Assembly: GCA_018821985.1 (NCBI GenBank)
Contig: JAHJKP010000001.1
Span: forward strand, 1 to 49,098
DNA: 49,098 bases
Direction: 5' to 3'
Source of the DNA: Pseudomonadota bacterium
GTDB lineage: Bacteria; Desulfobacterota; Desulfobulbia; Desulfobulbales; Desulfocapsaceae
The translations under genes and the position numbers were made by a program. How positions within the stretch are numbered: position 1 is the first letter of the stretch; every line of letters begins with the position of its first letter. Positions 4,230 through 27,348 of this stretch are shown one piece after another. Below the pieces are notes generated by a model. It had not been told where the DNA came from. It did not search any database and was given only the letters and a program-made list of their open reading frames with translations.

Positions 4230-4232
4230 ATC

Positions 4233-6841: not shown

Positions 6842-6874
6842 AAACTGCCTAAGCACTGTGCTTCAGGCAGTTTT
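6842..6874 (+). terminator. probable terminator hairpin
   Basis: The arms aaactgcct and aggcagttt, extended inward by aagca/tgctt around one bulged base, form a long stem followed by only four T. It lies between the pseudouridine synthase and the HU-like gene. Confidence 0.6.
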
Positions 6875-6933
6875 GGACTTTAACAATATTTTTTATCACA
6901 AAACGACAGCAGCTGAATTTACAGGAGTAAGGC

Positions 6934-7221: not shown

Positions 7222-7224
7222 TCA

Positions 7225-7242
7225 GGGGCCAAGCAGGGCCCC
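7225..7242. terminator. GC-rich hairpin between convergent genes
   Basis: A 6-bp perfect stem (ggggcc / ggcccc) with a 6-nt loop lies between the ends of the HU-like gene and rimO. No T-run follows on either strand, so this is a weak candidate. Confidence 0.35.
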
Positions 7243-7250
7243 AAGCCACT

Positions 7251-8582
7251 TCAATAGATAATTTCTCCCACCAGATCATAGACCTGAGCTTCGTTAATTC
7301 GTACTTGGACAATATCTCCAGGGTTGGCAGTGCCATCGGATATATAAACACAGCCGTCAATATCAGGAGCCTGAAAGCGGGTCCTGCCTTCCAACAGCAG
7401 ATCTGTTTCCCGGCTTACCCCTTCCACCAGCACCGGCTCCACTCGCCCCACATATTTCTGCAAATTTGTCGCTGACACCTCTGCCTGCACCCCAAGAATA
7501 AAATCAAGGCGATCACTTTTCTCGCCCTCAGAACACTGATGAGAGAAATTTTCTGATGGACAGCCAGTCTCATTGGCATAGGCAAAGACTCCGACATGAT
7601 CCAGATGAGCCTCCCTTAAAAATTGTTCCAGCTGCCTCACATCATCATCAGTTTCACCAGGAAAACCAACCATCAGGGTGGTACGTAAGGCCACATTAGG
7701 GAGAAACGCCCGGACGCGACCAATAAGTTGATACAGGTCGTCACTTGCATAATGACGATTCATACGCTTTAGAACCGTATCACTGACATGTTGGAAAGGA
7801 ATATCCATATATGGCACAATACGCGGCTCCTCGGCCATCAACGAAAGCAGCGCGTCATTGATACCTGACGGATAAAGATACATAAGCCGGATCCATGGAA
7901 TTGAGCTCTCAGCCAGAAGGGACTTCAGCAATGCTGGCAGGTGAACGGAATCTGCCAGGTCGTCTCCGTAGGCAGTCAGATCCTGGGCTATAAGGGAGAG
8001 TTCCCGCACCCCTTTTTGTTCAAGATGTCCGGCCTCAGTGACCAGATCAGCTATGGGCCTGCTGCGCAGATCTCCCCTGATTGACGGAATCATGCAATAG
8101 GAACAACGGTTATTGCACCCTTCTGTAATCTTCAACCAGGAACGGTAAAAAGGGGTGGAAATGCGCCGAGGCATGGTACTATCCATCAGAAATCGCTCAG
8201 CGATAACAACCTTGTTCTTCAGCTCTCCTGCTATCAACGCTGCAACCAGCGACACTATTTGATGACAGCCTTCGGTACCAATAAAGAGATCAACCTCCGG
8301 CAACTCATGGAGAAGCTCTTCTCGGTATCGCTGCACCATGCACCCTGTCACCACCAGTAATTTATCTGGATCGTCCTGTTTTAGCAGAGTCAGCTCCAGA
8401 ATCTCCTCAATGGCCTCTTCCACTGCCGACTGGATAAATCCACAGGTATTGATGAGCAGCATCGACGCCTGTTCCGGATCTTCTTCAAAGGCCCAGCCGG
8501 CCTGTTCCAGAAGCCCGAACATCAACTCTGAATCCACAAGGTTTTTCGGGCAGCCAAGGCTGATCAGGTGAAAACTTGCCAT
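7251..8582 (-). CDS. rimO: ribosomal protein uS12 methylthiotransferase RimO
   Basis: A radical-SAM methylthiotransferase that adds a methylthio group to a conserved Asp of ribosomal protein uS12. The N-terminal MTTase domain begins FHLISLGCPKNLVDSE and carries three cluster cysteines (in SLGCPKN, INTCGF and VTGCMVQRY). The radical-SAM motif CNNRCSYCMIPSIRGDLRSR follows, and a C-terminal TRAM domain ends the protein (GRTRFQAPDIDG ... GDIVQVRI). The frame is open to 8606 (451 aa). The internal ATG at 8582 has AGGA about 9 bases upstream and starts MASFHLISLG, so I prefer it (443 aa). Confidence 0.95.
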   Translation of the reverse strand: MASFHLISLGCPKNLVDSELMFGLLEQAGWAFEEDPEQASMLLINTCGFIQSAVEEAIEEILELTLLKQDDPDKLLVVTGCMVQRYREELLHELPEVDLFIGTEGCHQIVSLVAALIAGELKNKVVIAERFLMDSTMPRRISTPFYRSWLKITEGCNNRCSYCMIPSIRGDLRSRPIADLVTEAGHLEQKGVRELSLIAQDLTAYGDDLADSVHLPALLKSLLAESSIPWIRLMYLYPSGINDALLSLMAEEPRIVPYMDIPFQHVSDTVLKRMNRHYASDDLYQLIGRVRAFLPNVALRTTLMVGFPGETDDDVRQLEQFLREAHLDHVGVFAYANETGCPSENFSHQCSEGEKSDRLDFILGVQAEVSATNLQKYVGRVEPVLVEGVSRETDLLLEGRTRFQAPDIDGCVYISDGTANPGDIVQVRINEAQVYDLVGEIIY

Positions 8583-8655
8583 ATCCATTTTTCCTATTCG
8601 AGACATAAAAATATTTCTCTGCGGTTTTCACAAGGGCTTCTTGGTCCGCCGCAGA

Positions 8656-9411
8656 TCAAACTCCATTAGGGATACAGGTCATACTTTGCATGGCAGCCAT
8701 TAACATCCCCGACATATCCTGACTTCGCCGTCGAAATGCCGGCGTTGAGAACCCAGGTTTCCACTCTTTCTGCCACAACTCATCAGAGACCAGCATCAGG
8801 GCCGCAAATTCAATCCCCCGGAAAAGGGCCACCGTGCAGAGCGCCGAATATTCCATATCAATGGCTACTATATCCTGTTCCTTATGCAGACGCGCAAGCA
8901 GATCCCGCGTTTCACGGTAAGGCGCATCCGTCGACCAGACCCTCCCTTCCTGCCATGCAATTTCACTTCGATCAAGGGTGTCACGTAACCAGGCCATCAG
9001 AGATGCAGAGGGTTTTGGTCCCAGATCACAACTATAATAGCGGGACGTCCCCTCTCCGCACAATGCCTGCCCCGGCAACAAGACGCTACCGACCTCCAGC
9101 CCATGTTGCAATGCACCACACCAACCAACCAGGATAAGCCGCTTGGCTCCCAGGACAATGAGTTTTTCCATGCACAGTACAGCCATAGGCGCACCAACTG
9201 CCGGCCCGGCCACAAAGAAGGTCTCGTCACCATTCACACAAAGCATGCTGTTAAAGAAAAATCGCTTCTTGCCGCCCTCGGTGACCATCTTATTCACCGC
9301 ATTCGTGGCCTCAGCGGGATTTACAAAAAAAAGTCCTGTCTCAGGAATCACCTTTTCCTTCCTGCCCCGTACCGGATGCATTACTACATCTTCTCTCTCA
9401 AGGTCACACAT
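8656..9411 (-). CDS. nucleoside phosphorylase family protein
   Basis: A 251-residue member of the PNP/UDP phosphorylase superfamily, which cleaves the glycosidic bond of nucleosides with phosphate. Marks are VAGPAVGAPMAVLCMEKLIVLGAKRLILVG (phosphate and ribose region; in full it spans the central sheet), GWCGALQ, and VAIDMEYSALCTVALFRG, with the Met-Glu that contacts ribose. The pattern is closest to uridine phosphorylase-like members, but substrate is not determined. RBS support for the first ATG is weak; a second ATG at 9381 has GAGAG upstream and is possible. It is separated from rimO by about 70 bases on the same strand. Confidence 0.8.
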   Translation of the reverse strand: MCDLEREDVVMHPVRGRKEKVIPETGLFFVNPAEATNAVNKMVTEGGKKRFFFNSMLCVNGDETFFVAGPAVGAPMAVLCMEKLIVLGAKRLILVGWCGALQHGLEVGSVLLPGQALCGEGTSRYYSCDLGPKPSASLMAWLRDTLDRSEIAWQEGRVWSTDAPYRETRDLLARLHKEQDIVAIDMEYSALCTVALFRGIEFAALMLVSDELWQKEWKPGFSTPAFRRRSQDMSGMLMAAMQSMTCIPNGV

Positions 9412-9470
9412 AGGAAAACCATCTGCTGTTACTACTCTTTGTAGAAAATCACATTACCCACTTTCCAAAC

Positions 9471-9506
9471 GCAAAAAGGCCACAGATTTCTCTGTGGCCT
9501 TTTTGC
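9471..9506. terminator. strong bidirectional terminator
   Basis: A perfect 16-bp stem (gcaaaaaggccacaga / tctgtggcctttttgc) with a 4-nt loop has a T-run in the arm on both strands. It ends the atpE transcript on the minus strand. Confidence 0.92.
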
Positions 9507-9537
9507 GCGATCAGTGACGATCACACTCTGCTGTCTA

Positions 9538-9789
9538 CTACTTGATCAATGGGTTTGCATACAGAAGGATCAGAGAGATAACAAGACCGTAAATAGCAAC
9601 AGACTCAGCAAGAGCCATACCGAGGATCATGAAGGTCATCAATTTTGGCTGTACTTCAGGATTACGGGCAAGACCCTGGGTCGCACCGTTACCAACATTA
9701 CCAATACCGATACCTGCTCCAAGACCGGCAAGACCGATTGAGAGCGCAGCGCCAATACAAACCAAACCAAGCATCAAATTACTTTCCAT
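9538..9789 (-). CDS. atpE: F-type ATP synthase Fo subunit c
   Basis: An 83-residue two-helix hairpin protein that forms the rotating c-ring of ATP synthase. The first helix has GLAGLGAGIGIGNVG, the polar loop is ARNPEVQP, and the second helix carries the ion-binding Glu in ALAESVAIYG. Na+-type rings usually have a Gln in the first helix at the place where this protein has Ile (GIGIGN). The residues after Glu (S, V, A) are only partly Na+-like, so proton coupling is more likely; this is inference. AAGGAGA lies just upstream of the start. Last gene of the Fo block. Confidence 0.97.
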   Translation of the reverse strand: MESNLMLGLVCIGAALSIGLAGLGAGIGIGNVGNGATQGLARNPEVQPKLMTFMILGMALAESVAIYGLVISLILLYANPLIK

Positions 9790-9888
9790 TGTGTTCTCCT
9801 TGTAAAATTAAAGTTTTTTTGGCCTTCTTCCTATATAAAATAAATAACTCAGGTACAACCCGAATCATTCAAAACTTATGTTGCAACA

Positions 9889-10611
9889 TCAATGCGCATG
9901 CTCATTGGACTGAGTGAAATAAACAACGGTCAACAATACAAAAACCATGGCCTGCACCAGTGAAACCAAAACGCCCAGAACCATGATCGGCAGGGGGGCA
10001 AAATATGCACCAGCCAGCATAAAGAGAATTCCCAACAGTGTCTCTTTTGCCATGATATTTCCGAAAAGACGGATAGAGAGTGACAACAGACGGGCAAAGT
10101 TACTGATAAGCTCAATGGGGAGCATCAACGGGATCAGCACCGGCATAGGTCCAAGAAAATGCTTTACATAAGCAAAACCATTGGCACGAATACCAATGAT
10201 ATGATGCGTGATCCAGACAATAATGGTCAAGGCAAGAGTAGTATTGATACTGGAAGTAGGAGACATGAAACCTGGAATCAAACCGATCAGATTGGCCACG
10301 GCAATATACAGAGCGAAAGTGGCAATCATGGGAAAAAGTTTATCCGTCAAATCCCTTCCCATATTTTCAACGAAGAAGTTATCCATACCACCAATAAGAA
10401 TCTCCCAGAAATTCTGTCCTTTTCCCGGCACCATCTCCAGATTTCCCAAGGTCAGCTTACCAACCACTACCAGAAAAAGCATGGTAAACCAAGTATAGGT
10501 CATATAGGGCGCACACAGTTGCTCAACCAAACCATGACCGACCGGGCCATGGGGAATGGGCAGTCCCAGTTTCTCCAGGATAATTGATATAAATAGTATT
10601 GGATGTTCCAT
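9889..10611 (-). CDS. atpB: F-type ATP synthase Fo subunit a
   Basis: A 240-residue polytopic membrane protein forming the ion channel against the c-ring. The essential Arg is in PIELISNFARLLSLSIRLFGN, and the C-terminus ends FVLLTVVYFTQ. The frame runs open to 10782, but that stretch overlaps atpI. The ATG at 10611 with GAGGG upstream begins MEHPILFISI and is the usual start for this family. It is preceded by atpI, with 8 bases between stop and start. Confidence 0.95.
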   Translation of the reverse strand: MEHPILFISIILEKLGLPIPHGPVGHGLVEQLCAPYMTYTWFTMLFLVVVGKLTLGNLEMVPGKGQNFWEILIGGMDNFFVENMGRDLTDKLFPMIATFALYIAVANLIGLIPGFMSPTSSINTTLALTIIVWITHHIIGIRANGFAYVKHFLGPMPVLIPLMLPIELISNFARLLSLSIRLFGNIMAKETLLGILFMLAGAYFAPLPIMVLGVLVSLVQAMVFVLLTVVYFTQSNEHAH

Positions 10612-10619
10612 AATCCCTC

Positions 10620-11042
10620 TTACCTCCTGCTGCTGATAATATAGCGTCCCGCCGCACCGACTGTCGTCAGGGTGATGGTAAACACTACCGTTGACAGCCC
10701 CACCAGCAATCCAAAGATGTTCACCTTGCCGCTCTTTATGAGCATCAGCAAGACAAGCCCGATGATTGCCAGCCGGAGCCAAAATTTAATAATATAACGT
10801 GTTTTACCGACCTTGAGCGCTTTTTTCTCCCCCTGGCCTGCCTCGGAAGAATCTAGAGATTTCATGAAGCGGGCCACATCCTGGTGTGTCAACACAAAAC
10901 TGACAATGGAAATAACCCCACCGACAGCCACCGCCCAGGCAATTTCCCAAGAGAAAAACACCCAGGAACCACCGCACAGAAGCAGTAGGCAGACCCAACT
11001 CAACACCTGCATCTTGCGCAGGGATACCAATTCATCCGACAC
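10620..11042 (-). CDS. atpI: ATP synthase subunit I (AtpI)
   Basis: A 140-residue small membrane protein with two hydrophobic pairs: about residues 13-50, and 85-130 after a charged loop (SSEAGQGEKKALKVGKTRY). The size, topology and position directly before atpB match AtpI/UncI, an assembly helper for the c-ring. Sequence conservation in the family is low, so position is the main support. Confidence 0.85.
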   Translation of the reverse strand: MSDELVSLRKMQVLSWVCLLLLCGGSWVFFSWEIAWAVAVGGVISIVSFVLTHQDVARFMKSLDSSEAGQGEKKALKVGKTRYIIKFWLRLAIIGLVLLMLIKSGKVNIFGLLVGLSTVVFTITLTTVGAAGRYIISSRR

Positions 11043-11063
11043 TCTGTTGCAACCGCCCAGACC

Positions 11064-11291
11064 TTAGTCTTTATCTTGCTGTTTGATAATATCGAACAGA
11101 CTTTTAAAACCGGCGGCTATACCAAACGCAAGCCCGATAAAAGTAAACCATGGAGTGGTTCGATCATCAAACACCTTCTGATCGAGATAAATCCCCCCCC
11201 CCATACCAATAAAGATTGCCGCAACAAAGGTAAATCCGATATGACCATAGTTGCCCAGCAGGTGGATCATCTCTTTACTCATTTTCGACAT
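11064..11291 (-). CDS. atpZ: AtpZ/AtpI-family membrane protein
   Basis: A 75-residue protein with two transmembrane helices and the AtpZ signature GGGIYLDQKVF followed by TPWFTFIGLAFGIAAG. AtpZ accompanies AtpI at the head of many Fo operons and, with it, forms a proposed ion (Mg2+/Ca2+) channel or assembly factor. A GTG at 11303 is in frame, but AAGGTGGAG lies 6 bases before the ATG at 11291, so I chose the latter. First gene of the Fo block, about 90 bases after hemL. Confidence 0.85.
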   Translation of the reverse strand: MSKMSKEMIHLLGNYGHIGFTFVAAIFIGMGGGIYLDQKVFDDRTTPWFTFIGLAFGIAAGFKSLFDIIKQQDKD

Positions 11292-11383
11292 CTTCGTCTC
11301 CACCTTCGTTCCGAGAACGACTCTTTAACAAACAATCGAATCTGTTAGCATGCCCACTTGTCAAAGTCAACGATTTTTTAATT

Positions 11384-12670
11384 TTATGCTAATTTTTTGA
11401 ATGACCATTCAGTCATTTCAAGGGCTCTTTCCAGTTGTTTTTCAGTCTGGGCTGCGGAAATAAAAGCCACCTCGAACTGAGATGGCGCCAGATAAATACC
11501 CTTCGACAGCATTTGGCGATAATGCTGGCCATAGCGACCGGCATCAGCAGTCATGGCCGATTGAAAATCAACCACTTTCTCAGTGGTAAAAAATCCGGTC
11601 ATCAACGATCCCACCCGATTCAACCGGACCGGAATCTTTGTTCGCTCGCTGATCTCTCGAAGACGGTCGGCAAAACCAGCAGCCTTGTCATTTAAGTGAG
11701 TATAGAATCCCTCCTGCTTAAGTAATTTCAAGGTGGCAATACCAGCGGCCATGGCCAGAGGATTCCCGGACAGAGTCCCAGCCTGATAGACAGGGCCGTC
11801 CGGAGCTATCCTGTCCATGATATCTGCCCGGCCACCATAGGCCCCAACAGGAAGTCCTCCACCAATAATCTTGCCCAGGCAGGTCAGATCAGGCATGATC
11901 CCGAAATATTCCTGCGCCCCGCCATAGGCGAGACGGAACCCGGTGATCACTTCATCAAAGATAAGAACGATGCCGAGCTCCGCAGTGAGCGCCCGCAACT
12001 TCTGTAAAAAACCAGGGGCAGGAGCAACACATCCCATATTGCCGGCCACCGGCTCAACAATCACACAGGCAATATCGAGGGTGGCATCACGCAATGTCTT
12101 TTCCAGGATATCCTCATTATTATATGGGATGGAAACGGTATTTTTAACAATCTCTTCCGGCACCCCAGGGCTTCCTGGAATACCAAGGGTGATCACTCCA
12201 GATCCTGCCTTCACCAGAAATGAATCGGCATGGCCATGATAACAACCATCAAATTTAACAATCACCTTTTTACCGGTATAACCTCGGGCAAGACGGACCG
12301 CGCTCATGGTTGCCTCGGTGCCGGAGCTGACAAAGCGAACCTTTTCCACCGATGGCAGGGCGTCCACCACCATAGTGGCAAGCTCTATCTCTTTTGGGGT
12401 AGGCGCCCCGAAGCTGGTTCCATGCTGCATCGCCTCAGAAATGGCTGCCAGAATCTGTGGATGGGCATGCCCCAGAATCATCGGCCCCCAGGAACAGACA
12501 AAATCTATATATTCGTTGCCATCCACATCATAGACAGATGAGCCCTGTGCCCGTTCAATAAAAAGCGGGTCACACCCCACCGATCGACAGGCCCGCACCG
12601 GACTGTTCACGCCGCCTGGAATAACCTTTCGTGCCTGTTGAAACATCTGTGCTGATGTGCTTGTTTTCAT
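11384..12670 (-). CDS. hemL: glutamate-1-semialdehyde 2,1-aminomutase
   Basis: A 428-residue PLP enzyme that turns glutamate-1-semialdehyde into 5-aminolevulinate, the first committed precursor of heme and siroheme. Visible marks are [14 protein letters not shown] at the N-terminus, [30 protein letters not shown], and the PLP lysine in [17 protein letters not shown]. The length is standard. The start has AAGGAG at 8 bases. Siroheme demand is high here because DsrAB is encoded in the same window; that link is inference. The Fo genes follow on the same strand. Confidence 0.97.
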
Positions 12671-12994
12671 TGTTCGACTCCTTCAACAATTCCTTATATT
12701 TTTTCGATTCACGACTCACAATTATTAATTTCCATTAATAAACAGCATAACCATAGCATGCCAGTAGAAAAAGTGCCAAACAAGTTCCACACCTTGACCT
12801 TTTTGCAATCATGCACAATTTATTACAATTTTACTAATATTCATCCTCATGCCTTGCTGACGCTTTTACTGTAATTTTTACTTGTCATGCAAAATCCCAG
12901 AAGGTACACTATGGACACAGTTCAATAATTACCTTTAAAATTAAAATAATACTAAATATTCATACTACAGAACAATCAACAACGGAGACAAATA
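12671..12994. other. divergent intergenic region, hemL/trxA
   Basis: An AT-rich 324-base interval between divergent hemL and trxA. It contains the putative trxA promoter listed separately. I see no ORF or stable hairpin. Confidence 0.5.
12882..12910 (+). promoter_or_regulatory. putative sigma-70 promoter of trxA
   Basis: TTGTCA (12882-12887) and TACACT (12905-12910) are separated by 17 bases, giving a leader of about 80 bases before trxA. Both hexamers are near consensus. Prediction only. Confidence 0.5.
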
Positions 12995-13321
12995 ATGGCA
13001 AGCGACAAAGTTCAAGCAATAAATGATGCTGCATTTAAGACAACTGTATCTTCAAATGTGCCCTGCCTTGTGGATTTCTGGGCACCTTGGTGTGGACCTT
13101 GTAAGGCTATCGGTCCAGTCATTGAAGACCTGGCCGAGGAATATGCCGGCAAAGTAACCATCCTGAAGATGAATGTTGATGACAACCCGGTCACGCCAGG
13201 GAAATTTGGTATCCGGGCCATTCCTACCCTGATCCTCTTTAAAAACGGTGAAGTGGTGGACCAGATTACCGGTGCCGTAGGAAAGAAACAACTTGTTGAC
13301 CTCATTAACAAGGCCCTGTAA
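12995..13321 (+). CDS. trxA: thioredoxin
   Basis: A 108-residue classical thioredoxin with the redox motif WCGPC (residues 32-36), the buried Asp in CLVDFWAPW and the cis-proline in IRAIPTLILF. It reduces protein disulfides in the cytoplasm. GGAGA lies 7 bases before the ATG. Its reductase gene trxB follows 93 bases downstream on the same strand, so both halves of the thioredoxin system are paired. Confidence 0.97.
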   Translation: MASDKVQAINDAAFKTTVSSNVPCLVDFWAPWCGPCKAIGPVIEDLAEEYAGKVTILKMNVDDNPVTPGKFGIRAIPTLILFKNGEVVDQITGAVGKKQLVDLINKAL

Positions 13322-13414
13322 GCAACGTCCGACCTCATTCCTTTGTGTGGCAAGGGTTTCTCTTGCCATTCAAGACTAACTGCCATCTCCTGAATATGAT
13401 GATCAAAAAAAGTA

Positions 13415-14347
13415 ATGAAAAAGACGCATTATGAACTGATCATTCTGGGTTCCGGTCCTGCCGGACTTGCTGCTGGTCTCTATGCGGCAAGAGCCAGGAT
13501 TGATCACCTCTTGATTGAAAAAGGGGCCACTGGCGGCCAGATCCTGCTCACCGACTGGGTTGACAACTATCCGGGCTTTCCTGACGGCCTTTCCGGCTTT
13601 GAACTTGCCGAAAAGATGGAGGCCCACGCCCGGCGCTTCGGGCTCAACACCCTGACTGCCAATGTGGTCAGCATGGATCTTCTGCAGCCCCCAAAACGGC
13701 TAACCCTGGAAGACGGAGAACAACTCACGTGCAACGCCCTGATCATCTGCAGCGGAGCCCGTCCCCAACTGCTTAACATCCCAGGGGAAGCCGAATTCGC
13801 CGGCAAGGGTGTCTCCTACTGTGCCACCTGTGATGGTCCTTTTTATCGCAACATGCATGTGGCCGTAGTAGGCGGCGGCAATACCGCAGTGCAGGAGGCC
13901 TCCCATCTCACTAAATTTGCCAGCCGGGTGACCCTAATCCATCGCCGTGACGCCCTGCGAGCCACAAAGATTATTCAGGAAAAGGCCTTTGCCAACGATA
14001 AGATTGATTTCATCTGGGACAGTCAGGTTACTGCCATTGAGGGAGAAAAAGGTGTTGAACGGATTCTCCTCAGAGATCGAGGTGGCAAAGAAACGACCCT
14101 GGCCGTTGACGGTATTTTTATCCTCATTGGCGTGATCCCCAATAATGAGATGCTCCCCCTGCAAGCCCTGAAGGCAGAGCATGGCGGATTTATCCCCACC
14201 GACAACGAAACCCGGACAGCAATCCCAGGAGTCTTTGCTGCTGGTGATATCCGCAGCAAAGAAGTGCGACAGATCGTCAACGCTGCAGGCGAAGGGGCAA
14301 CCGCCGAGCTCGCCGCTGAACATTATCTGAACAATTTGACACTATAA
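13415..14347 (+). CDS. trxB: thioredoxin reductase
   Basis: A 310-residue flavoprotein that reduces thioredoxin with NADPH. The FAD-binding motif GSGPAGLAAG is at residues 12-21, the redox-active CATC at 136-139, the second nucleotide-binding glycine motif GGGNTAVQ at about 153, and the C-terminal FAD motif GVFAAGDIRSKEVRQIV. A stop codon 13 bases upstream limits the start to this ATG; its RBS is weak. It lies six bases before bamD, suggesting one transcript trxA-trxB-bamD. Confidence 0.97.
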   Translation: MKKTHYELIILGSGPAGLAAGLYAARARIDHLLIEKGATGGQILLTDWVDNYPGFPDGLSGFELAEKMEAHARRFGLNTLTANVVSMDLLQPPKRLTLEDGEQLTCNALIICSGARPQLLNIPGEAEFAGKGVSYCATCDGPFYRNMHVAVVGGGNTAVQEASHLTKFASRVTLIHRRDALRATKIIQEKAFANDKIDFIWDSQVTAIEGEKGVERILLRDRGGKETTLAVDGIFILIGVIPNNEMLPLQALKAEHGGFIPTDNETRTAIPGVFAAGDIRSKEVRQIVNAAGEGATAELAAEHYLNNLTL

Positions 14348-14353
14348 GCTATC

Positions 14354-15148
14354 ATGCAATCACCTGCTTCTTTTTCACGTTCCTTGATCATCACCCTCCT
14401 TTCCGCAACCCTTCTAACCCTCTCGCTGAGTGGGTGCGCCACCATGAAATCCTGGTTTGGCATTGGAGGCGAAGAGATACAGATCCCAGCAGACAGTCTT
14501 GCCATTAAGGGCATGGATGCCTACGACGTCGGCGATTACTATGAAGCAGCAAAACATTTTAACGAAATTCTGGACAACTATCCTTTCAGTCCCCAGGCAA
14601 TGCTTGCTGAGCTGAAAGGCGCCGACTGTAACTATTTCATGGAAAACTATGCAGAAGCACTGGTTCTTTACAAGAGATTTGAGGAACAACATCCAACCAA
14701 CGAGGCTATTCCCTATGTCTTGTATCAAATAGCCATGTGCAGTTACCAGCAGATTGACACTATTGATCGAGACACCTCCGGAGCGACAAAAGCAATCCGG
14801 GATTTTACCAGATTAATCAAGGCCTTTCCCGAATCACCCTATACCGATGAGGCCAAGGCCAGGAGCAGGGCAGCCAAAGAGTTTCTGGTCAACCATGAAT
14901 ACCTTGTCGTCGAATTCTACCTGCGAACCGACAAATACCTTGATGCAAAAACCAGACTGAAGTATCTGGTCAGCACCTATCCTGACGCATCCATCACTCC
15001 CAAGGCCAAAGAGTTGCTCGCCAAAATCGAAACCGGTGAAAAGCTGGGATTCAACCTCTCTTCATGGTTCTCCGGCCTGGTTGAACTGCCGGACTGGCAT
15101 CTTTTCTCCTCTGAAAAGCCCACGGAACAGCCCCTGCCTTCCAAATAA
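14354..15148 (+). CDS. bamD: outer-membrane assembly lipoprotein BamD
   Basis: A 264-residue TPR lipoprotein of the BAM complex, which inserts beta-barrel proteins into the outer membrane. The lipobox LSGC gives lipidated Cys28. TPR-type units follow (GMDAYDVGDYYEAAKHFNEI, ENYAEALVLYKRF, and a C-terminal DKYLDAKTRLKYLVSTYPD) with the YfiO pattern FPESPYTDEAKAR. The length agrees with the family. Starts 6 bases after trxB. A 20-residue tail after about residue 235 is less conserved. Confidence 0.9.
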   Translation: MQSPASFSRSLIITLLSATLLTLSLSGCATMKSWFGIGGEEIQIPADSLAIKGMDAYDVGDYYEAAKHFNEILDNYPFSPQAMLAELKGADCNYFMENYAEALVLYKRFEEQHPTNEAIPYVLYQIAMCSYQQIDTIDRDTSGATKAIRDFTRLIKAFPESPYTDEAKARSRAAKEFLVNHEYLVVEFYLRTDKYLDAKTRLKYLVSTYPDASITPKAKELLAKIETGEKLGFNLSSWFSGLVELPDWHLFSSEKPTEQPLPSK

Positions 15149-15164
15149 GCCTCTTCTTCAAAGC

Positions 15165-15191
15165 AGCCGAACAGAGGTGTTCTGTTCGGCT
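15165..15191. terminator. hairpin between convergent bamD and NIL-ferredoxin genes
   Basis: An 11-bp perfect stem (agccgaacaga / tctgttcggct) with a 5-nt loop. No T-run follows, so termination is likely but not certain. Confidence 0.5.
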
Positions 15192-15217
15192 GATTGCTAT
15201 CTATAAGCCATTTATAC

Positions 15218-15658
15218 TCAGGAGTTTATATTTTCCGTCAATGCGTCTTGCCCCAGAGAGAGCTCCATAGCCCTTACCGGACAGATAGGCACGCATAAAC
15301 TGCAGCCGGTACATTTGTCCGGATCAAAAAGTACTGCCATATCAGGTCGATGCAGAGACAGGGCACCCACCGGACAGACGCCCGTACAGACCCCGCACTG
15401 AAAACATTTTTCATCATCCCGGCGGACGCTGGCCGCAAGACGCTCGACCTTGACCCCACGCTCTTCAAGATACTCAAGCCCTTTGACCACATTGGCCTTG
15501 CTTCCTTTCAACTCAAGGATCATAAGCCCATCCCTCTGCGGCAGGATATCCGCCTTCAGGATATTAAACTCAACATCATACTGTTTAACCAACTGATAAA
15601 TAATCGGTTCGTTGCTGGTATCCTTAAAAAAGCGTAAGATATATATACGGTTATACAC
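15218..15658 (-). CDS. NIL domain-ferredoxin protein
   Basis: A 146-residue protein with an N-terminal NIL domain (about residues 1-75, the ligand-sensing fold known from methionine ABC transporters). A bacterial-type 2[4Fe-4S] ferredoxin follows: CFQCGVCTGVCPVGAL (about 86-101) and CTGCSLCVPICPVRAM. Such proteins are common in anaerobes, and some are linked to sulfur or homocysteine assimilation; the role here is not known. The start is GTG with AGAGAGG 7 bases upstream. Confidence 0.9.
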   Translation of the reverse strand: MYNRIYILRFFKDTSNEPIIYQLVKQYDVEFNILKADILPQRDGLMILELKGSKANVVKGLEYLEERGVKVERLAASVRRDDEKCFQCGVCTGVCPVGALSLHRPDMAVLFDPDKCTGCSLCVPICPVRAMELSLGQDALTENINS

Positions 15659-15689
15659 GATAAAACCTCTCTTTTGTCTATTACAGGCG

Positions 15690-16304
15690 CTATGCGACCG
15701 CCTGCGGGTCCACCACTCTGACTATCCACTCCTCAAGCAAGCCTAAGAGTGCGTCAAGGGGTTGATTCGTATCTATGATTAACAACTGCTCCGGGCCAAG
15801 CTCACTAGGCATCTCAAACCTTTTCTTCTGTTGGAGATAAATCTCCCAGCGCCCATCGGACACCGCCTGCGGATCGTTCTGCCGTTGCTCCATCCGCTCT
15901 CGCATCACCTCTTCGGGACAGATGCAGTGTACAAAAAAAACTTTAGCTTTTGGTGCCAACTTCTCCTGCACCAGCTCCCGCTCACAACGGGCCTGATACG
16001 ATCCATCAAGAACCACACAAACCCCAGGTCCTGCATCCAGATCCTGCTCTGCCAGAATCAACAATTGATCATAGGTCTTGCGGGAGAATTCGTGGCTGTA
16101 AATCCCCTGATCCGCCGGGCCTGACTGCCTGCTCTCAGGGGCTAGACCTGCGATCTCTTTACGCACCCTGTCCGAATTATAATAGCCACAAGCATGCTGT
16201 CTGGCCCAAGCAGCAGCCAGATAACTTTTTCCAGTGGCAATCATCCCAAAAAAAACCAATACCTTTCCTGCAGCTGCCACTTCAGCCACCCACCTTGACC
16301 GCAT
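15690..16304 (-). CDS. P-loop kinase-like protein (AAA_33 type), possibly half of a split gene
   Basis: A P-loop NTPase with Walker A FFGMIATGKSYLA and a downstream Asp in VVLDGSYQ, followed by a lid-like RERMEQRQND. It matches the kinase half usually fused behind an aminoglycoside-phosphotransferase-like domain. The frame is open to 16382, but ATG 16304 begins directly before the P-loop strand. Its start overlaps the end of the phosphotransferase-like gene by 23 bases in a different frame, so the two either are coupled genes or arose by frameshift from one bifunctional protein. Substrate unknown. Confidence 0.75.
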   Translation of the reverse strand: MRSRWVAEVAAAGKVLVFFGMIATGKSYLAAAWARQHACGYYNSDRVRKEIAGLAPESRQSGPADQGIYSHEFSRKTYDQLLILAEQDLDAGPGVCVVLDGSYQARCERELVQEKLAPKAKVFFVHCICPEEVMRERMEQRQNDPQAVSDGRWEIYLQQKKRFEMPSELGPEQLLIIDTNQPLDALLGLLEEWIVRVVDPQAVA

Positions 16305-17304
16305 ATTTCTGGGCCAGGACAAAATAGCGGGCAGCCTGCTCTCTGCACCGCGCTCCAACGGATATATCAACCGCCGGATCACTGGCCGTAAAAAGATTTA
16401 TCTTGCCGCGAACCATGGCCCGGTAACATTTATAAAAATCAAGCATCTCGACAAGGCCGGGATCTGCCGATTCTTCCACAAAACGCTCAACAAAATAGGT
16501 CGAAAGTTCCTCCAGTCCATGGAAATCGAGATCCATGGCCAGAAATGCCACATCAGCCGCCACATCCGAATAGCGGAAACGCTCATTAAATTCGATACAA
16601 TCAAAGATGTGCACAGGGGTTGTCAAACAGATATTGGCAGAATAAAGATCTCCGTGGCAATCACGAATCTTCCCTGCCGCCCGGCGTCGCTCAAATCGTA
16701 GTTCATCTTTCAGGAACGCACGGGCATAGTGACCAATCTGATCAAACTGGTCACGACTGAATGCCCCTTGATCGATAAAGACCTCCGTCTGATCAAAATT
16801 CTCCAGAACATTGACGGCAACAGAGGTGGCACGACCAAACTCACTTATGGCCTCCGTCCCCTCAGCCCGCTGATAAAAAGGAACCAGGACCTCAATGATC
16901 CGGTCAATCTGCCCATGATCCAACTGACCGGCACCAATCACATGGGGCATCATCAGCTCTTCCGGCATACGGACCATCTTCACCCCATATTCGACCACCT
17001 CACCCTTCCCGTTCAGACTATACTGATTACCCTCACGAGTAACCGTAACCACATCCAAGTAGAGATCAGGGCAGAGACGACGATTGAGAATCAACTCCTG
17101 CTCACAATAATATTTTCTTTTTTCCAGAGTTGAAAAATCGAGAAAACCAAAGTTCACCTGTTTTTTCCATTTATAGACAAAATCCCCAGCCAGCAAGACA
17201 AAAGAGATATGGGTCTGCAGCAGCTGAATGCCCTCCACTGGATGGGGATAACTACTGCTCTGCTGCAGATATTGGATATATTGGGGGAGGATATCTTCAC
17301 TCAT
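16282..17304 (-). CDS. aminoglycoside phosphotransferase-like kinase
   Basis: A 340-residue protein with the APH/choline-kinase fold. The lysine-bearing strand is FVYKWKKQVNFGFLDFST, the catalytic loop is IRDCHGDLYSANICL (His-Gly-Asp and Asn), and the metal-binding Asp is in IFDCIEFNERFRYSDVAADVAFLAMDL. AAGGAG lies 6 bases before the ATG. Homologues carry a C-terminal P-loop kinase domain that here is encoded by the next, overlapping frame. Despite its name the family need not give antibiotic resistance; the substrate is unknown. Confidence 0.82.
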   Translation of the reverse strand: MSEDILPQYIQYLQQSSSYPHPVEGIQLLQTHISFVLLAGDFVYKWKKQVNFGFLDFSTLEKRKYYCEQELILNRRLCPDLYLDVVTVTREGNQYSLNGKGEVVEYGVKMVRMPEELMMPHVIGAGQLDHGQIDRIIEVLVPFYQRAEGTEAISEFGRATSVAVNVLENFDQTEVFIDQGAFSRDQFDQIGHYARAFLKDELRFERRRAAGKIRDCHGDLYSANICLTTPVHIFDCIEFNERFRYSDVAADVAFLAMDLDFHGLEELSTYFVERFVEESADPGLVEMLDFYKCYRAMVRGKINLFTASDPAVDISVGARCREQAARYFVLAQKYAVKVGG

Positions 17305-22585: not shown

Positions 22586-23644
22586 CTACCTTCCCTCCTG
22601 CGCATCATCCACCCGCTTAACCCCCTCCATAAGAAGTCTCATAAAATCACCAACTTCTGCAGCTTTCATCTCCTGCGGAGAGAGTCCAAGGGTAAACCTA
22701 TAGGTTCCTTCATGTTCAGCCAGCATGGCGAAGATCGCCTCTTCATTCTCTCGTCCCTGATAATGGGCATTAATGATACAACCTTCCCTAAAGGAAACCT
22801 TTCCAGGCCCGCGAGGAAGGTTCAGGGCAAGAACACCTGTTTTACTGTTCATATGAAAAATCTGAAACAATTCTGCTGGGGCCATATCGTGCAATTTACC
22901 CTGCATACAGGAAGCAAAATCTTCAGCCCTGGCCCGGTTCACCCGAGTCAGGCGCTGCGCCAATAAACGGGCCATAAAAATCTGAACAGCAGGCAGCTTA
23001 TCAAGAAGAAGATTGAAATCATCACTGGAAACAGCAAGCACCTCTGTATCACATAATGCCCTGACCGAGGCCCCAGCCACATCCCCTCCCAGATAACTCA
23101 TCTCCCCACAGATCTCACCAGCCCCCAAAGTCGTGATCACAACGGGTCCATCAATCACAAGCGCTTGTCCTGAAAGGATAAGGTAAAGAGAGGATGTCGG
23201 TTCCCCTTTATGGATCAGAAGAGTCCCTTCATGAACAAGCTCCAGTTGACACCGTCCAATAAAATTCTTTAATTCATCATCAGGGATTATCTGAATCAAG
23301 GGAAACGACTGAATCCTCGCCAGAAGTTCCTGTTCCCTTGCCCCCAGGACAGGAACTGTTCCTGTTGCCATATTTTCTGGAATTGATACCGGGATAAATT
23401 TAATCAGGCCAGTACAGCCACTACAACTGAATATCTGTTTTTCAGCCACCAGATGATCACTCTTTGCCGCAAGAAGCTTGAACAACAACTGGGTCATTTC
23501 CCGGACCAAAATCAAACAGGTTGCTTTATTCCCCGGACAGGAAAGTGCCTTGTCCGACAGAACCAGCTGCTCACCAACCTTATATAATGGACAATGGTTG
23601 TCTTCAATAATTTCAAAAAAGACCTGAAAAGATTTCATACCCAA
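22586..23644 (-). CDS. cyclic nucleotide-binding/DUF4388 regulatory protein
   Basis: A 352-residue soluble protein in three parts. Residues 1-70 form a small domain (FEIIEDNHCPLYKVGEQL) with paired cysteines, and a C-x-x-C (SCSGCTG) follows at about 73. Residues 105-225 are a cyclic-nucleotide-binding domain with LLIHKGEPTSSLYLILSGQA and GEICGEMSYLGG. Residues 245-330 are DUF4388 (MQGKLHDMAPAELFQIFHMNSKTGVLAL), found in many two-component and gliding-motility regulators. There is no DNA-binding helix-turn-helix. It may link a nucleotide or redox signal to protein interaction; the function is unknown. Confidence 0.82.
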   Translation of the reverse strand: MGMKSFQVFFEIIEDNHCPLYKVGEQLVLSDKALSCPGNKATCLILVREMTQLLFKLLAAKSDHLVAEKQIFSCSGCTGLIKFIPVSIPENMATGTVPVLGAREQELLARIQSFPLIQIIPDDELKNFIGRCQLELVHEGTLLIHKGEPTSSLYLILSGQALVIDGPVVITTLGAGEICGEMSYLGGDVAGASVRALCDTEVLAVSSDDFNLLLDKLPAVQIFMARLLAQRLTRVNRARAEDFASCMQGKLHDMAPAELFQIFHMNSKTGVLALNLPRGPGKVSFREGCIINAHYQGRENEEAIFAMLAEHEGTYRFTLGLSPQEMKAAEVGDFMRLLMEGVKRVDDAQEGR

Positions 23645-24144: not shown

Positions 24145-26874
24145 ATGACCATCCTTTCTGAACAGCTGGAAGTCATTTTTCAGGAAATCAAAGTCAGATT
24201 TTCCCAGCATCAACAGATTCAAGTAACACCTATTGCTGGTACTCCACCTGAACAGTATCGTATCACCTATCATTTACAAGGCCTCTGTAAAGAAGATGAA
24301 GGAGAGGTCCGAGAATGTACTGACCATGTAGTCATTCTCACCCTTCCTTTTGGATTCCCCCACTTTCCACCAAACTGTAAGCCAGAAAGCCCTGTTTTCC
24401 ACCCTGACTTTGATCAGGCGGCCATCTGCATAGGAGACTTCTGGGAAAACAACCAATCTCTTTCCGAGCTGATCATCCATATTGGCCGCATGCTTTGCGG
24501 CGAGATCTACTCAACCAATAATGCCTTCAATGAAAAAGCCGCAATCTGGTACCAGGAGAATAAAAACAGACTGCCCTTGGACACCATCCATCAACTCTCA
24601 ACGTCCACACCACTGTTAGCTCCAGAGGAGCAGAAAGCAGCAGCCCCTGAAACGCCGCTGACAATGGATCTTGTTGATGATATCCTTTTTCCAAGCAATG
24701 AGATAGAAGAGATTGACGAAGTTGTAATACTCGAACAAGGAGAAAACTCCTTTCCTCAAATCGCGGCAGAAAGACCTCTGCATCCTCACCTGTCCCTGGA
24801 GCCCTCTTCCGAGACCCCACAAGACCCCGAGCCCGAGCCTGATGTGGATAGGCAGATGCAGCGCAACCTCAATGAAGCGCATCAAAAACACCAAGAAGGA
24901 GAGGCCCTTGAGCACCAGGGAAATCCGGCGAAGGCCCTTAAGCGATATAAAGAAGTAAAGAATTTAGTCCCGGATTTTCCTGAGATAGATAAAGATATCG
25001 ATCGGGCACAATATTCTCTGGAGATGCTTGGCGACTGGGCAGTAGAAGACGTTAGCGAAAAAGATACCGGTAATAACAAGAAAAAAACTGCCTCAAAACA
25101 CAATGAAAAACCGGTTGCTCCCACCAAAAAAAAGAGCGCCTCAGTCCAGCAACCAGAGATAAAACAGGGCAGCTCCCGTTGGCCAATCATTGTCGGCTGT
25201 GGCTGTATAGGCTTTCTGCTCATCTTGAGCTTCAGTTACCTATTTTTGAGTACTCAATTAGAACATGCACAAAGCATGTCCAGAGAGTGCCAACAGCTTC
25301 AGGAGGCAAAACAAATCCCTGAGGCCGAACAAAAATGTACCGATGCCCTAGAGTTGACCTCAAAAATTCTTTTCATCAAGCAAGAGGAGAAAAAACTTGT
25401 CATTGAAGAGATCAAGCAAGTCCAGGACTCAATAAACAGAGGCAAAGAACGTGCGCTCAGCAGAGAAGACAGCAGCTTGCCAGAATGGCAGCAATCCATG
25501 AAGTTTGCTGATCAGCATCTGGCTGATAGAAAATGGCAAGAGGCCTTAGCAGGGTATACTCGCACATTGCAACTTGCTTCCGCAATACCAACGATCGATC
25601 AAAGTATCCTTGATCAGATCCGTAGAAACATAATAAGCGCCGAATTCAACATTGCTTTACAGGCAGGTGAGCAGGCATTGGCTCGGACAGAATGGGATTC
25701 TGCACAAAAATACTTTGATAAGGCCCTGGATCTTGCCAGGAAAAATCCACAGATTCCATCTACAAACATCTCAAGGATTCAATCACTCACCGGCCAGGTC
25801 GAATTTAACAAATTAATGGCCTCAGGTGATGAATATTTTTCTCAAGAAAACTGGACGAATGCCCTAACTGCTTTTGAACAAGCCCAAAAGATAGAACAGA
25901 AGTTCTCTTTTTCTGATGCCGAGACCCTCACCTCTCTCCAGGAGATTATCGTCCGAACCAAGGTATTCAACTCGCTGGAGCAGGGGAAAAAAGCCTTTGC
26001 CGATGCCCAATGGGATCAAGCGATCAGTTTATACGAACAGGCTATTCAACTCCTTGAAGAAAACAGTGAACTTCTGCGTCGCGACAATCCCCAACAAAGC
26101 CAGCAAAAGATTTCACGACTCATGCTTCATGCCGCCGTTATCAGAGACCAGCAGAGCGTTGCCAACCACTTGAAAAACAAAGAGTTTACCCAGGCAATCA
26201 GCAAGTTGCAGGCGATCATCAAAACAACAAGCATGAGCTCTTTCGCCAGCGAAGAGGAGTTCCAGACAATTATCAAAGAGACTGAACTTTCTATCATTCA
26301 GGCGCAGGAAGATTTGCTGAAGAGCCAACATATCTCATATCTGACGAACAATTATCAAAAGCTCTTCACCCAGAACAACCCCGCCCTGAACGCTGAGAAT
26401 TTATCAAGTCCTCGCGTCACGTTTCTTAAAAAAATAGGCCACAAAATGCTCTACAGAATCCAGTGCTCTGAGCAGGGAAATAGTCGGCCGGTGCTCCTGC
26501 AGACAAGTTATATCTACGACCCAGCCACCAAACAATGGCGTTTTTTCAGCAATGAAAACTCCGCCAATGAGCAGAACACAATAAACGCAGGGCAGAAAAT
26601 ACTCTCCTCAGCATACCAGGCCCAGGAAGATCGTTTGATATCAGAACAGATATTGTATCTGACCGACAATTTCCAGACCCTTTTCATCCAGGACAATCCA
26701 TCCCTGCTCCCTGAAAGTTTATCCAGACCTCAGGCAATCTTTCTTAAGAAAATAGGTGGGAAGATGTTATTTATGCTCCAGTGTTTTGATCAAGGATCCG
26801 GAGACTCAACGCTCCTGAAAGTCAGCTATCTCTATGATCCGGCAAAGAATCAGTTGGAACCATATAATAAATAA
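24145..26874 (+). CDS. E2 ubiquitin-conjugating-like, TPR membrane protein
   Basis: A 909-residue protein of no named family that I know. Residues 1-145 resemble a ubiquitin-conjugating E2 fold. LTLPFGFPHFPP fits the E2 strand and PxxPP turn. FHPDFDQAAICIGDFW fits the HPN ... ICLD motif, making Cys95 the candidate catalytic residue, with HPD in place of HPN. SLSELIIHIGRML then NAFNEKAAIWYQENK fits the E2 C-terminal helices. A TPR-like unit (about 247-280), a Lys-rich linker and one transmembrane helix (about 346-369) follow. Beyond it lie four TPR-like units with Trp464, 517, 570 and 623, exactly 53 apart, and a C-terminal module present twice (about 719-800 and 825-907). The positive-inside rule suggests a cytoplasmic E2 and a periplasmic tail. 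Single gene, weak RBS, no E1 or ubiquitin-like partner nearby. Confidence 0.75.
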   Translation: MTILSEQLEVIFQEIKVRFSQHQQIQVTPIAGTPPEQYRITYHLQGLCKEDEGEVRECTDHVVILTLPFGFPHFPPNCKPESPVFHPDFDQAAICIGDFWENNQSLSELIIHIGRMLCGEIYSTNNAFNEKAAIWYQENKNRLPLDTIHQLSTSTPLLAPEEQKAAAPETPLTMDLVDDILFPSNEIEEIDEVVILEQGENSFPQIAAERPLHPHLSLEPSSETPQDPEPEPDVDRQMQRNLNEAHQKHQEGEALEHQGNPAKALKRYKEVKNLVPDFPEIDKDIDRAQYSLEMLGDWAVEDVSEKDTGNNKKKTASKHNEKPVAPTKKKSASVQQPEIKQGSSRWPIIVGCGCIGFLLILSFSYLFLSTQLEHAQSMSRECQQLQEAKQIPEAEQKCTDALELTSKILFIKQEEKKLVIEEIKQVQDSINRGKERALSREDSSLPEWQQSMKFADQHLADRKWQEALAGYTRTLQLASAIPTIDQSILDQIRRNIISAEFNIALQAGEQALARTEWDSAQKYFDKALDLARKNPQIPSTNISRIQSLTGQVEFNKLMASGDEYFSQENWTNALTAFEQAQKIEQKFSFSDAETLTSLQEIIVRTKVFNSLEQGKKAFADAQWDQAISLYEQAIQLLEENSELLRRDNPQQSQQKISRLMLHAAVIRDQQSVANHLKNKEFTQAISKLQAIIKTTSMSSFASEEEFQTIIKETELSIIQAQEDLLKSQHISYLTNNYQKLFTQNNPALNAENLSSPRVTFLKKIGHKMLYRIQCSEQGNSRPVLLQTSYIYDPATKQWRFFSNENSANEQNTINAGQKILSSAYQAQEDRLISEQILYLTDNFQTLFIQDNPSLLPESLSRPQAIFLKKIGGKMLFMLQCFDQGSGDSTLLKVSYLYDPAKNQLEPYNK
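26302..26868 (+). repeat. tandem duplicated C-terminal module in the E2-like gene
   Basis: Two copies of one module begin at about bases 26302 and 26620 (period 106 residues). Shared marks are QAQED, YLTxNxQxLF, NP, LSxP, FLKKIGxKML, QC and YDPA. Divergence between copies is large, so the duplication is old. Confidence 0.8.
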
Positions 26875-26918: not shown

Positions 26919-27161
26919 TCAATGATGGTGGTGATGATGGTGTTCATGCTCCGGCATCTTCCCGCCAGCCGCCAGCAAGGCTTTATCCAAAAGCTCACTT
27001 ACCTGATTCATAGCCGCGATGGCGCTCTCGAGATAAGCAGCCACAGTCTCTTCTCCAGCGTCATGGGCAAAAGAAGACCATTTCCCGCATTCTTCAGCAT
27101 GGCCCCGGTTATGTTCAATCCAATGCGGCAACAAGACCCTTAATTTTTCCATCTGCTCCAT
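26919..27161 (-). CDS. small His-tailed protein, probable metal binding
   Basis: An 80-residue protein that starts at the ATG at 27161 (GGGAG upstream); the frame open to 27221 lacks RBS support. The sequence RVLLPHWIEHNRGHAEECGKWSSFA is a recurring pattern in small anaerobe proteins. The C-terminus is EHEHHHHHHH, ten residues nearly all His. Binding of nickel or zinc is likely from composition but not proven. It faces the E2-like gene convergently and lies close to cooT, another small nickel protein. Confidence 0.75.
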   Translation of the reverse strand: MEQMEKLRVLLPHWIEHNRGHAEECGKWSSFAHDAGEETVAAYLESAIAAMNQVSELLDKALLAAGGKMPEHEHHHHHHH

Positions 27162-27348
27162 TCTACTCCCCCCTGTTGTTGATTCTCTCATCTCTCTGCT
27201 TACAAACAAAAAACAAAACACAATACAGCAAGCTGTTTTTAGTTTTATTTCCGTATAGTTTTTAATGGTTCTACATTCAACAAATCTGCTTACAGAATAA
27301 TAAGCTCCGGAGATCTTGTCATGCTTATGACATTACATGATCTTCGGC

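What the first reader, a model, noticed from the sequence alone, without database searches (positions are those of the whole stretch)
24145..24585. E2 ubiquitin-conjugating-like domain in a bacterial membrane protein
The first 145 residues follow the E2 order of motifs: a PxxPP turn (FPHFPP), FHPD in place of HPN, then AICIGD nine residues after the His, with Cys95 at the catalytic position, and the two C-terminal helices. Bacterial E2-like proteins are known in small operons with E1, ubiquitin-like and JAB partners. Here the domain is alone and fused to a membrane-anchored repeat protein. I do not know a described system of this architecture. The Asp in place of Asn in HPN is unusual for an active E2.
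Basis: partly seen in the sequence, partly recalled or inferred. Interest (0 to 1): 0.78.

Follow-up and report, generated by a model that had tools for sequence, protein, structure and literature searches.

The report
Membrane protein with repurposed E2 fold
Many bacteria of one sulfur-cycling order carry a membrane protein whose inside-facing part has the shape of a ubiquitin-conjugating enzyme, but whole groups of them have lost the enzyme's key residue, so the shape probably serves as a docking module rather than an enzyme.

Summary
Residues 1-147 of ORF 24145-26874 (909 aa) fold as an E2: AlphaFold pLDDT 90, best solved match UBE2S at Z 14.0; 28 of 29 aligned sequences hit Pfam UQ_con at E<=0.01. 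The protein has one membrane segment (348-366), TPRs and a C-terminal alpha/beta domain. Its E2 domain occurs in 157 of 242 genomes sampled from its order (Desulfobulbales by relatives' titles), mostly in conserved synteny.

It is Cys in 73 of 80 loci near the window, but Arg in 40 of 40 genomes drawn from another family, and Cys/Lys/Arg (6/6/2) in a third. HPD replaces HPN in all 132 distinct loci. Helix 1 is acidic where two operon E2s are basic. No JAB or Prok-RING_1 was found in the genome; E1 homologues are TcdA-like and ThiF-like.

Kin outside the order include E2s in E1/Ubl/JAB operons. Best reading: a conjugation E2 domesticated into a UEV-like cytoplasmic docking module of a trans-membrane protein, probably acting with the divergent cNMP/DUF4388 neighbour, which lacks its cNMP domain only in rows where residue 95 is basic (19 of 19; few independent events). 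Catalysis in Cys lineages is not excluded. No description was found in the library searched.

The parts
24145..26874 (+). E2-TPR membrane protein, 909 aa
   Evidence: ORF; matches that include the E2 domain in 36 of 58 relatives (my reading of the rows); E2-domain profile in 157 of 242 genomes of the order
24145..24585 (+). E2 (UBC) fold domain, residues 1-147, predicted cytoplasmic
   Evidence: AlphaFold pLDDT 90; UBE2S Z 14.0; UQ_con
24346..24372 (+). PFGFPHFPP, residues 68-76; P68, F69, G70, P72, H73, F74, P75, P76 invariant in 81 of 81
24397..24414 (+). FHPDFD, residues 85-90 (HPD in place of HPN)
   Evidence: HPD 80 of 80 and 60 of 60 further domains; eight loci are in both sets, so 132 distinct
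24427..24429 (+). codon of Cys95, the catalytic position of E2s
   Evidence: C 73 of 80; R 40 of 40 drawn from family f12, C6/K6/R2 in f3
24889..24975 (+). TPR_2 match N-terminal of the membrane segment (residues 249-277)
25186..25242 (+). single transmembrane segment, residues 348-366, basic on its N-terminal side
25444..26124 (+). TPR-rich region after the membrane segment, predicted periplasmic (about residues 434-660)
26308..26550 (+). C-terminal alpha/beta domain, copy 1 (about residues 722-802)
   Evidence: AlphaFold pLDDT 93, helices plus four strands; fold matches not significant
26614..26871 (+). second copy of the C-terminal domain (about residues 824-909), seen also in near relatives of the window
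   Evidence: sequence
22586..23644 (-). divergent neighbour and likely partner: N-terminal domain with four conserved Cys, cNMP_binding, DUF4388
   Evidence: Pfam; conserved Cys; adjacency

Best explanation
The domain is a true member of the E2 (UBC) fold superfamily that has been domesticated as a non-conjugating, UEV-like docking module. The protein spans the inner membrane once. The E2-like module faces the cytoplasm; the TPR superhelix and the C-terminal alpha/beta domain face the periplasm. Shown: the fold, the single hydrophobic segment, orthology, synteny, absence of Cys95 in whole groups, and the invariant PFGxPH/HPD/W residues. Inferred: the orientation; that periplasmic TPRs bind a protein or envelope cue; and that the conserved face around the old active site docks a cytoplasmic partner. 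The most likely partner is the divergently encoded protein with four conserved cysteines, a cNMP-type domain and DUF4388. The old catalytic position is then part of the docking face: Cys mostly where the partner has three domains, Arg or Lys where the partner has lost its cNMP domain.
For: Fold. Position 95 not conserved while the rest of the site is. HPD in all 132 distinct loci. Helix 1, the E1-binding face of E2s (recalled), has mean net charge -1.7 (range -4 to 1) in 80 orthologues versus +2 in two operon E2s. No Prok-JAB or Prok-RING_1 match in the genome; E1 homologues only TcdA-like and ThiF-like; one ThiS-family protein. JAB over cut-off in 5 of 36 relatives that have the E2 domain versus 13 of 22 that lack it. 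Partner adjacency in 65 of 76 loci counted, kept in a clade where the housekeeping synteny is not seen (L127, L129, L131-L133). Partner without its cNMP domain: 0 Cys, 14 Arg, 5 Lys; three-domain partner: 62 Cys, 3 Arg, 1 Ser (two of the 62, L080 and L106, are cut by contig ends, and two of the 3 Arg rows are one locus).
Against: Cys95 is kept in 91% of the near set and in most rows of the window's family, which a purely structural role does not explain. The link between residue 95 and partner architecture rests on one or two independent pairs (not significant), and an Arg with a three-domain partner exists (L134, L199). The partner is absent in 11 of the 76 loci counted (and in L122), 8 of those 11 still with Cys. 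No interaction was tested. The orientation rests on the positive-inside rule alone: the N-terminal flank is the more basic in 69 of 74 orthologues, not in 5.
Confidence: 0.58

Rival explanations
1. It is an active orphan E2 in the Cys-bearing lineages. A diverged E1 and ubiquitin-like protein elsewhere in the genome charge Cys95, and the membrane-bound E2 conjugates targets at the inner membrane, like the membrane-anchored UBE2J enzymes of the ER (recalled).
For: Cys95 in 73 of 80 near loci. Outside the order, a relative with Cys sits in a run with a Ubl-like ORF, ThiF, JAB, FHA and Prok-RING_1 (L046). Another relative lies in a ThiF, two small proteins, E2, Mov34 run on a Crinalium plasmid.
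Against: Arg in 40 of 40 genomes drawn from one family with the same gene, and Lys/Arg in 8 of 14 of another. HPD instead of HPN throughout. Acidic helix 1. No Prok-JAB or Prok-RING_1 match in the genome; E1 homologues only TcdA-like and ThiF-like.
Confidence: 0.2
2. Position 95 does some other chemistry or sensing: Cys as a thiol or metal switch in some lineages, and a basic residue as its constitutive replacement in others, on an otherwise non-conjugating domain.
For: The alternatives are mostly Arg and Lys. The partner's N-terminal domain carries four cysteines conserved in 63 of 63, consistent with a metal or redox theme.
Against: No co-variation of Cys95 with a second Cys of the domain was tested; Cys78 is conserved (79 of 81), but its distance to Cys95 was not measured.
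Confidence: 0.15
3. The E2 domain is a decaying remnant without function.
For: Repeated change of the catalytic residue (at least 6 Cys/non-Cys changes among 144 orthologue rows).
Against: 18 of 150 columns are invariant in 81 sequences. The gene is intact and syntenic across families, and long proteins persist without Cys95.
Confidence: 0.02

Closest known systems
Eukaryotic ubiquitin-conjugating enzymes (Pfam UQ_con; nearest solved fold UBE2S)
   Same: Fold, order of motifs, His-Pro, Cys at the catalytic position in the window
   Different: HPD not HPN, acidic helix 1, Cys not conserved in the family, fused to TM and TPRs, no conjugation partners detected
UEV (Tsg101, Mms2; recalled) and RWD domains: catalytically inactive E2 folds (RWD-like bacterial forms described in PMC1779556, passages seen)
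   Same: E2 fold kept while the catalytic Cys is lost; likely a binding module
   Different: The window protein itself keeps Cys95; it is membrane-spanning with TPRs; no Ubl gene recognised nearby
Bacterial standalone E2s of E1/Ubl/E2/JAB operons (here G392 L046, G132 L049, Crinalium plasmid L155; literature rows 6a-6e of PMC1779556, BilABCD in PMC11354881, passages seen)
   Same: Sequence relatives of these three at 24-31% identity
   Different: They have HPN; the window gene is chromosomal, among housekeeping genes, with no E1, Ubl, JAB or RING neighbour recognised
Membrane-anchored E2s UBE2J1/J2 (recalled)
   Same: Cytoplasmic E2 domain tethered by one TM segment
   Different: Here the far side of the membrane carries a large TPR region and an alpha/beta domain, and catalysis is doubtful

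Membership tests
E2 (UBC) fold superfamily | alpha / four-stranded meander / helices in E2 order | tested here: met
   (Z 14.0, rmsd 2.9, 132 aligned)
E2 (UBC) fold superfamily | UQ_con profile over its gathering score | tested here: not met
   22.9-23.1 bits against 27 for the window domain; relative L048 scores 30.4; the fold, not the cut-off, carries the superfamily claim
Active E2 conjugating enzyme | catalytic Cys conserved in orthologues | tested here: not met
   C 73 of 80 near loci; R 40 of 40 drawn from f12; f3 C6 K6 R2
Active E2 conjugating enzyme | HPN before the Cys (some active E2s differ, recalled) | tested here: not met
   HPD in 80 of 80 and 60 of 60, 132 distinct
Active E2 conjugating enzyme | basic helix 1 for E1 binding (recalled) | tested here: not met
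   mean net charge -1.7, range -4 to 1, n=80; two operon E2s +2
Active E2 conjugating enzyme | cognate E1 and ubiquitin-like protein in the genome | tested here: inconclusive
   ThiF-family: TcdA-like and ThiF-like, plus one false hit; one ThiS-family protein; a diverged pair cannot be excluded
Active E2 conjugating enzyme | thioester formation and transfer | not testable with these tools
   needs biochemistry
UEV/RWD-type inactive E2 | E2 fold without catalytic Cys | tested here: inconclusive
   window has Cys95; orthologues in other families have Arg or Lys
UEV/RWD-type inactive E2 | non-covalent binding of Ubl, peptide or E3 | not testable with these tools
   no binding assay possible
Bacterial E1/Ubl/E2/JAB (Bil-, Bub-, CBASS-like) operon | adjacent E1, Ubl and/or JAB genes | tested here: not met
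   neighbours are secDF, a CxxCxxCC protein, a HAD-like gene, cNMP/DUF4388 and a KpsF-type gene (secDF, HAD and KpsF-type are read from the sequence, not from a family search); no PADLOC hit for the E2 protein
TPR repeat proteins | TPR profiles over cut-off | tested here: met
   TPR_2 39 bits against 27; TPR_12, TPR_7 and TPR_11 also over

The most novel reading that the evidence does not exclude
A bacterial trans-membrane signalling protein has repurposed a ubiquitin-conjugating enzyme as its cytoplasmic output module. The former active site became a docking face that co-evolves with the domain make-up of a DUF4388 partner: Cys with a three-domain partner, Arg or Lys once the partner loses its cNMP domain. 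This is a bacterial counterpart of UEV evolution, independent of ubiquitin.
Probability: 0.4. Interest if true: 0.76.

Novelty: new variant of a known kind. Interest (0 to 1): 0.6.

Why it matters
In the papers of which I saw passages (PMC1779556, PMC11354881, PMC7159879), bacterial E2-like folds are described inside Ubl-conjugation or conflict operons. Here one is a chromosomal gene of most sampled genomes of an order, fused across the inner membrane to TPRs, with orthologues that carry Arg or Lys at the very catalytic position. That gives a natural experiment on how an E2 becomes a non-enzymatic binding module, with an obvious candidate partner next door. Isolates with different states exist: Desulfofustis glycolicus (Cys, L081), Desulfopila aestuarii (Ser, L117), Desulforhopalus vacuolatus (His, L126).

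Tried and rejected
Rejected or weak ideas. (1) That loss of the partner and loss of Cys go together: with truncated partners counted as present, Fisher p 0.14 (3 of 11 against 7 of 69); with truncated ones counted as broken p 1.6e-5 (8 of 16 against 2 of 64), but relatedness confounds it and only 4-5 independent supported pairs exist; in the larger set one or two pairs. I give it as a lead only. (2) Cluster cl27 as a shared neighbour: it joined FtsH-like, ClpA/B-like and other AAA ATPases, so a clustering artefact. (3) Phage or plasmid origin: nothing confirmed in IMG/VR (5 pattern stretches), none in phages, one distant plasmid E2. (4) A defence role: no PADLOC hit for the E2 protein; the partner's PADLOC hits cover only its cNMP region. 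(5) Prok-E2_A in 58 relatives: nothing, but no control rang either, so it shows nothing. (6) The C-terminal domain: no Foldseek match at E<=0.001; best Z 6.8, with cystatin-like and NTF2-like rows listed, which may be only a common arrangement. (7) Promoter-like and terminator-like sites around the gene: no clear excess over shuffles. (8) A TIGR04076 relation of the partner's N-terminal domain, recalled, was not found by NCBIfam and is not claimed. (9) Canonical cNMP binding by the partner: the Gly-Glu of the cassette is kept in 61 of 61, but at the place of CRP Arg82 (recalled numbering) the six commonest residues, 58 of 61, hold no Arg.

Results against, and rows dropped. Two f12 genomes seen before the draw do not have Arg: G172 has Ala, and in G047 the site is not alignable; G333, G057 and G143 have Arg. 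None of these five has an aligned Cys there. L047 (G047) and L048 were left out of the second tree. L069, L083, L091 and L122 were not scored for the partner as contig ends; L122 in fact shows no room for it, so the count is 65 of 77. Eight loci occur in both sets. Of 142 relatives found only the best 80 were returned, so weaker ones are under-sampled there. The 60 domains were chosen by me from the 157 genomes: 40 f12, 14 f3, 1 f6, 5 f1. The partner was looked for in 20 of those 60: 14 two-domain, 2 three-domain, 4 with no match (G482, G516, G497, G537).

Literature: the answered searches listed no paper that I recognised as describing this architecture; I judged by listings except for the three papers named. 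The library holds only open-licence papers; the Burroughs papers on prokaryotic RING and E2 domains cited there were not read.
Full report
What is there. ORF 24145-26874 codes for 909 residues. The first 147 residues were said to follow the E2 motif order, and they do. A 29-sequence alignment gave an AlphaFold model of residues 1-160 with pLDDT 90.2 and E2 topology. Foldseek against the PDB returned 332 matches at E<=0.001; the 50 rows shown are E2s or complexes or fusions containing one. VIA-align put UBE2S first at Z 14.0, rmsd 2.9, 132 aligned residues. By sequence, UQ_con scores below its cut-off for the window domain (22.9-23.1 against 27 bits), but 28 of the 29 aligned sequences, window included, hit it at E<=0.01. 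A sequence search of solved structures lists E2s first, best E 0.00085.

Rest of the protein. One hydrophobic segment lies at 348-366, with 5 Lys/Arg before and 1 after. Of 80 near orthologues, 74 gave a stretch over 480 aa; each of the 74 has exactly one such segment, and its N-terminal flank is the more basic in 69 of 74 (not in L061, L072, L075, L081, L135). The E2 domain is therefore predicted cytoplasmic and the C-terminal half periplasmic; this is inference. TPR profiles match on both sides of the segment. The C-terminal region was modelled at pLDDT 93: helices, then four strands. Its fold matches are not significant. In the window and near relatives this domain is present twice.

Distribution. 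The full protein matches in 38 of 58 relatives; in 36 of the 58 the match includes the E2 domain (my reading of the rows). An E2-domain profile matches 157 of 242 genomes drawn from the order and 13 of 395 drawn from the phylum (the same 13 of 395 by single sequence). The 80 loci kept of 142 in genome contigs bear titles such as Desulfocapsa, Desulfofustis, Desulfopila and Desulforhopalus, which NCBI places in Desulfocapsaceae, Desulfobulbales, or Desulfobulbaceae. The usual synteny is secDF, a CxxCxxCC protein, a HAD-like gene, the partner on the other strand, the E2 gene, then a KpsF-type gene on the other strand (secDF, HAD and KpsF-type are my names from the sequences; CxxCxxCC and the partner's domains are Pfam hits).

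Is Cys95 catalytic? In the 80 loci nearest the window it is Cys in 73, Arg in 3, Ser in 2, Tyr in 1, His in 1, with HPD in 80. Among 81 sequences 18 of 150 columns are invariant, including P68, F69, G70, P72, H73, F74, P75, P76, H86, P87, D88 and W100; Cys95 ranks 41st. I then drew 60 further domains: family f12 has Arg in 40 of 40; f3 has 6 Cys, 6 Lys, 2 Arg; f6 has 1 Cys; f1 has 4 Cys and 1 Arg (a short paralogue); HPD in 60 of 60. Eight of the 60 are loci already among the 80. Five f12 genomes seen earlier have Arg (3), Ala (1) and an unalignable site (1). With residue 95 masked, a tree of 149 rows needs 6 Cys/non-Cys changes among 144 orthologue rows. A residue that an enzyme of this kind needs would not behave so. 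HPD for HPN and an acidic helix 1 (mean -1.7 in 80, against +2 in L046 and in the Crinalium E2) point the same way; that the HPN Asn and a basic helix 1 matter in E2s is recalled knowledge.

Partners for conjugation. The genome (99.85% complete) has three ThiF hits: a TcdA-like protein, a 212-aa ThiF-like protein, and an MnmG-like false hit. It has no Prok-JAB match, no Prok-RING_1 match (of 14 controls only one rang, below cut-off), and one ThiS-family protein. Across 58 relatives, JAB over cut-off occurs in 5 of 36 with the E2 domain and 13 of 22 without. So no JAB-based conjugation set travels with the gene.

Where it comes from. Outside the order the profile finds G392, where the E2 (HPN, Cys) lies in a run with a small Ubl-like ORF, ThiF, JAB, FHA, Prok-RING_1, DnaJ, AAA and a subtilase (L046; the Ubl is my reading of its sequence). 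It also finds G132, with ThiF, E2, a weak JAB match, a proteasomal-type AAA and a Pup ligase (L049), and G082, a TPR-bearing relative without Cys (L048). A Crinalium plasmid encodes a relative annotated as E2 between ThiF, two small proteins that I read as Ubl-like, and a Mov34-type protein. The window family is thus kin to E2s of apparent conjugation operons.

The neighbour. Upstream and divergent is a 352-aa protein with cNMP_binding and DUF4388. It is present in 65 of 76 loci counted; one more locus, L122, has no room for it. It stays beside the E2 gene in one clade where the other neighbours are not seen (L127, L129, L131-L133). Its N-terminal domain has four cysteines conserved in 63 of 63. 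In f12 and in the Lys-type f3 genomes its cNMP domain is missing while both ends remain (14 of 20 regions; 2 three-domain; 4 without a match). Over all rows scored, two-domain partners go with 14 Arg and 5 Lys and no Cys; three-domain partners with 62 Cys, 3 Arg and 1 Ser; no partner with 8 Cys, 3 Arg, 1 Lys and 3 others. Of the 62, L080 and L106 are cut by contig ends, and two of the 3 Arg rows are one locus. This rests on one or two independent events, so it is a lead, not proof.

Mechanism. Shown: E2 fold, single membrane segment, orthology, conserved non-Cys residues, and a replaced Cys in whole groups. Inferred: TPRs and the C-terminal domain read something in the periplasm; the E2 face binds a cytoplasmic protein, most likely the DUF4388 neighbour. 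I put this at 0.58. An orphan but active E2 in the Cys lineages stands at 0.2, and another role of Cys95 (thiol, metal) at 0.15.

Known work. I saw passages of PMC1779556 (bacterial E1/E2/JAB operons and RWD-like inactive E2s), passages and one section of PMC11354881 (few bacterial homologues of human UBC domains), and passages of PMC7159879 (a Ubl-E2 protein in FtsH ternary systems). What I saw does not describe an E2 fold fused through a membrane segment to TPRs. Ten answered searches in an open-licence library listed nothing that I recognised as such; papers outside that library could hold it.

Noticed in passing
L049 (G132:C211:90000-105000), about 6087-13737: One gene run with ThiF-type E1, E2-like, weak JAB match, an AAA ATPase with proteasomal OB domains and a Pup ligase (7e-100): a possible hybrid of Ub-like and Pup-like systems.
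   Followed up: partly
L046 (G392:C35:55000-71000), about 1904-15842: Ubl-like ORF, ThiF, JAB, FHA, Prok-RING_1, E2 with a zinc-ribbon-like Cys motif, DnaJ, AAA and subtilase in a row, with a kinase-like and a trypsin-like ORF near, read from sequence.
   Followed up: partly
L040, L041, L050, L212: A short paralogue (about 530-550 aa, E2 domain, one TM in the three measured) in some genomes, with Pro or Arg at residue 95.
   Followed up: partly
window 26919-27221 (-): Small ORF whose product ends in EHEHHHHHHH, a natural run of seven histidines, between the E2 gene and the KpsF-type gene.
   Followed up: no
L137 5791-6864 and L138 6584-7684 (same genome as the window): Two paralogues of the cNMP/DUF4388 partner elsewhere in the genome, not beside an E2 gene.
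   Followed up: partly
L043 2745-5213 (G051:C12): FtsH-like protein with two AAA modules and an M41 peptidase near an E2-TPR gene.
   Followed up: no
window 777-2732 (-) and 16285-17304 (-): A 652-aa DUF5122 beta-propeller protein, and a 340-aa ORF without any Pfam match at 1e-5.
   Followed up: no
window 26308-26550: C-terminal domain of the protein with a Cys invariant in 24 of 24 sequences (A2 position 105), predicted periplasmic.
   Followed up: partly
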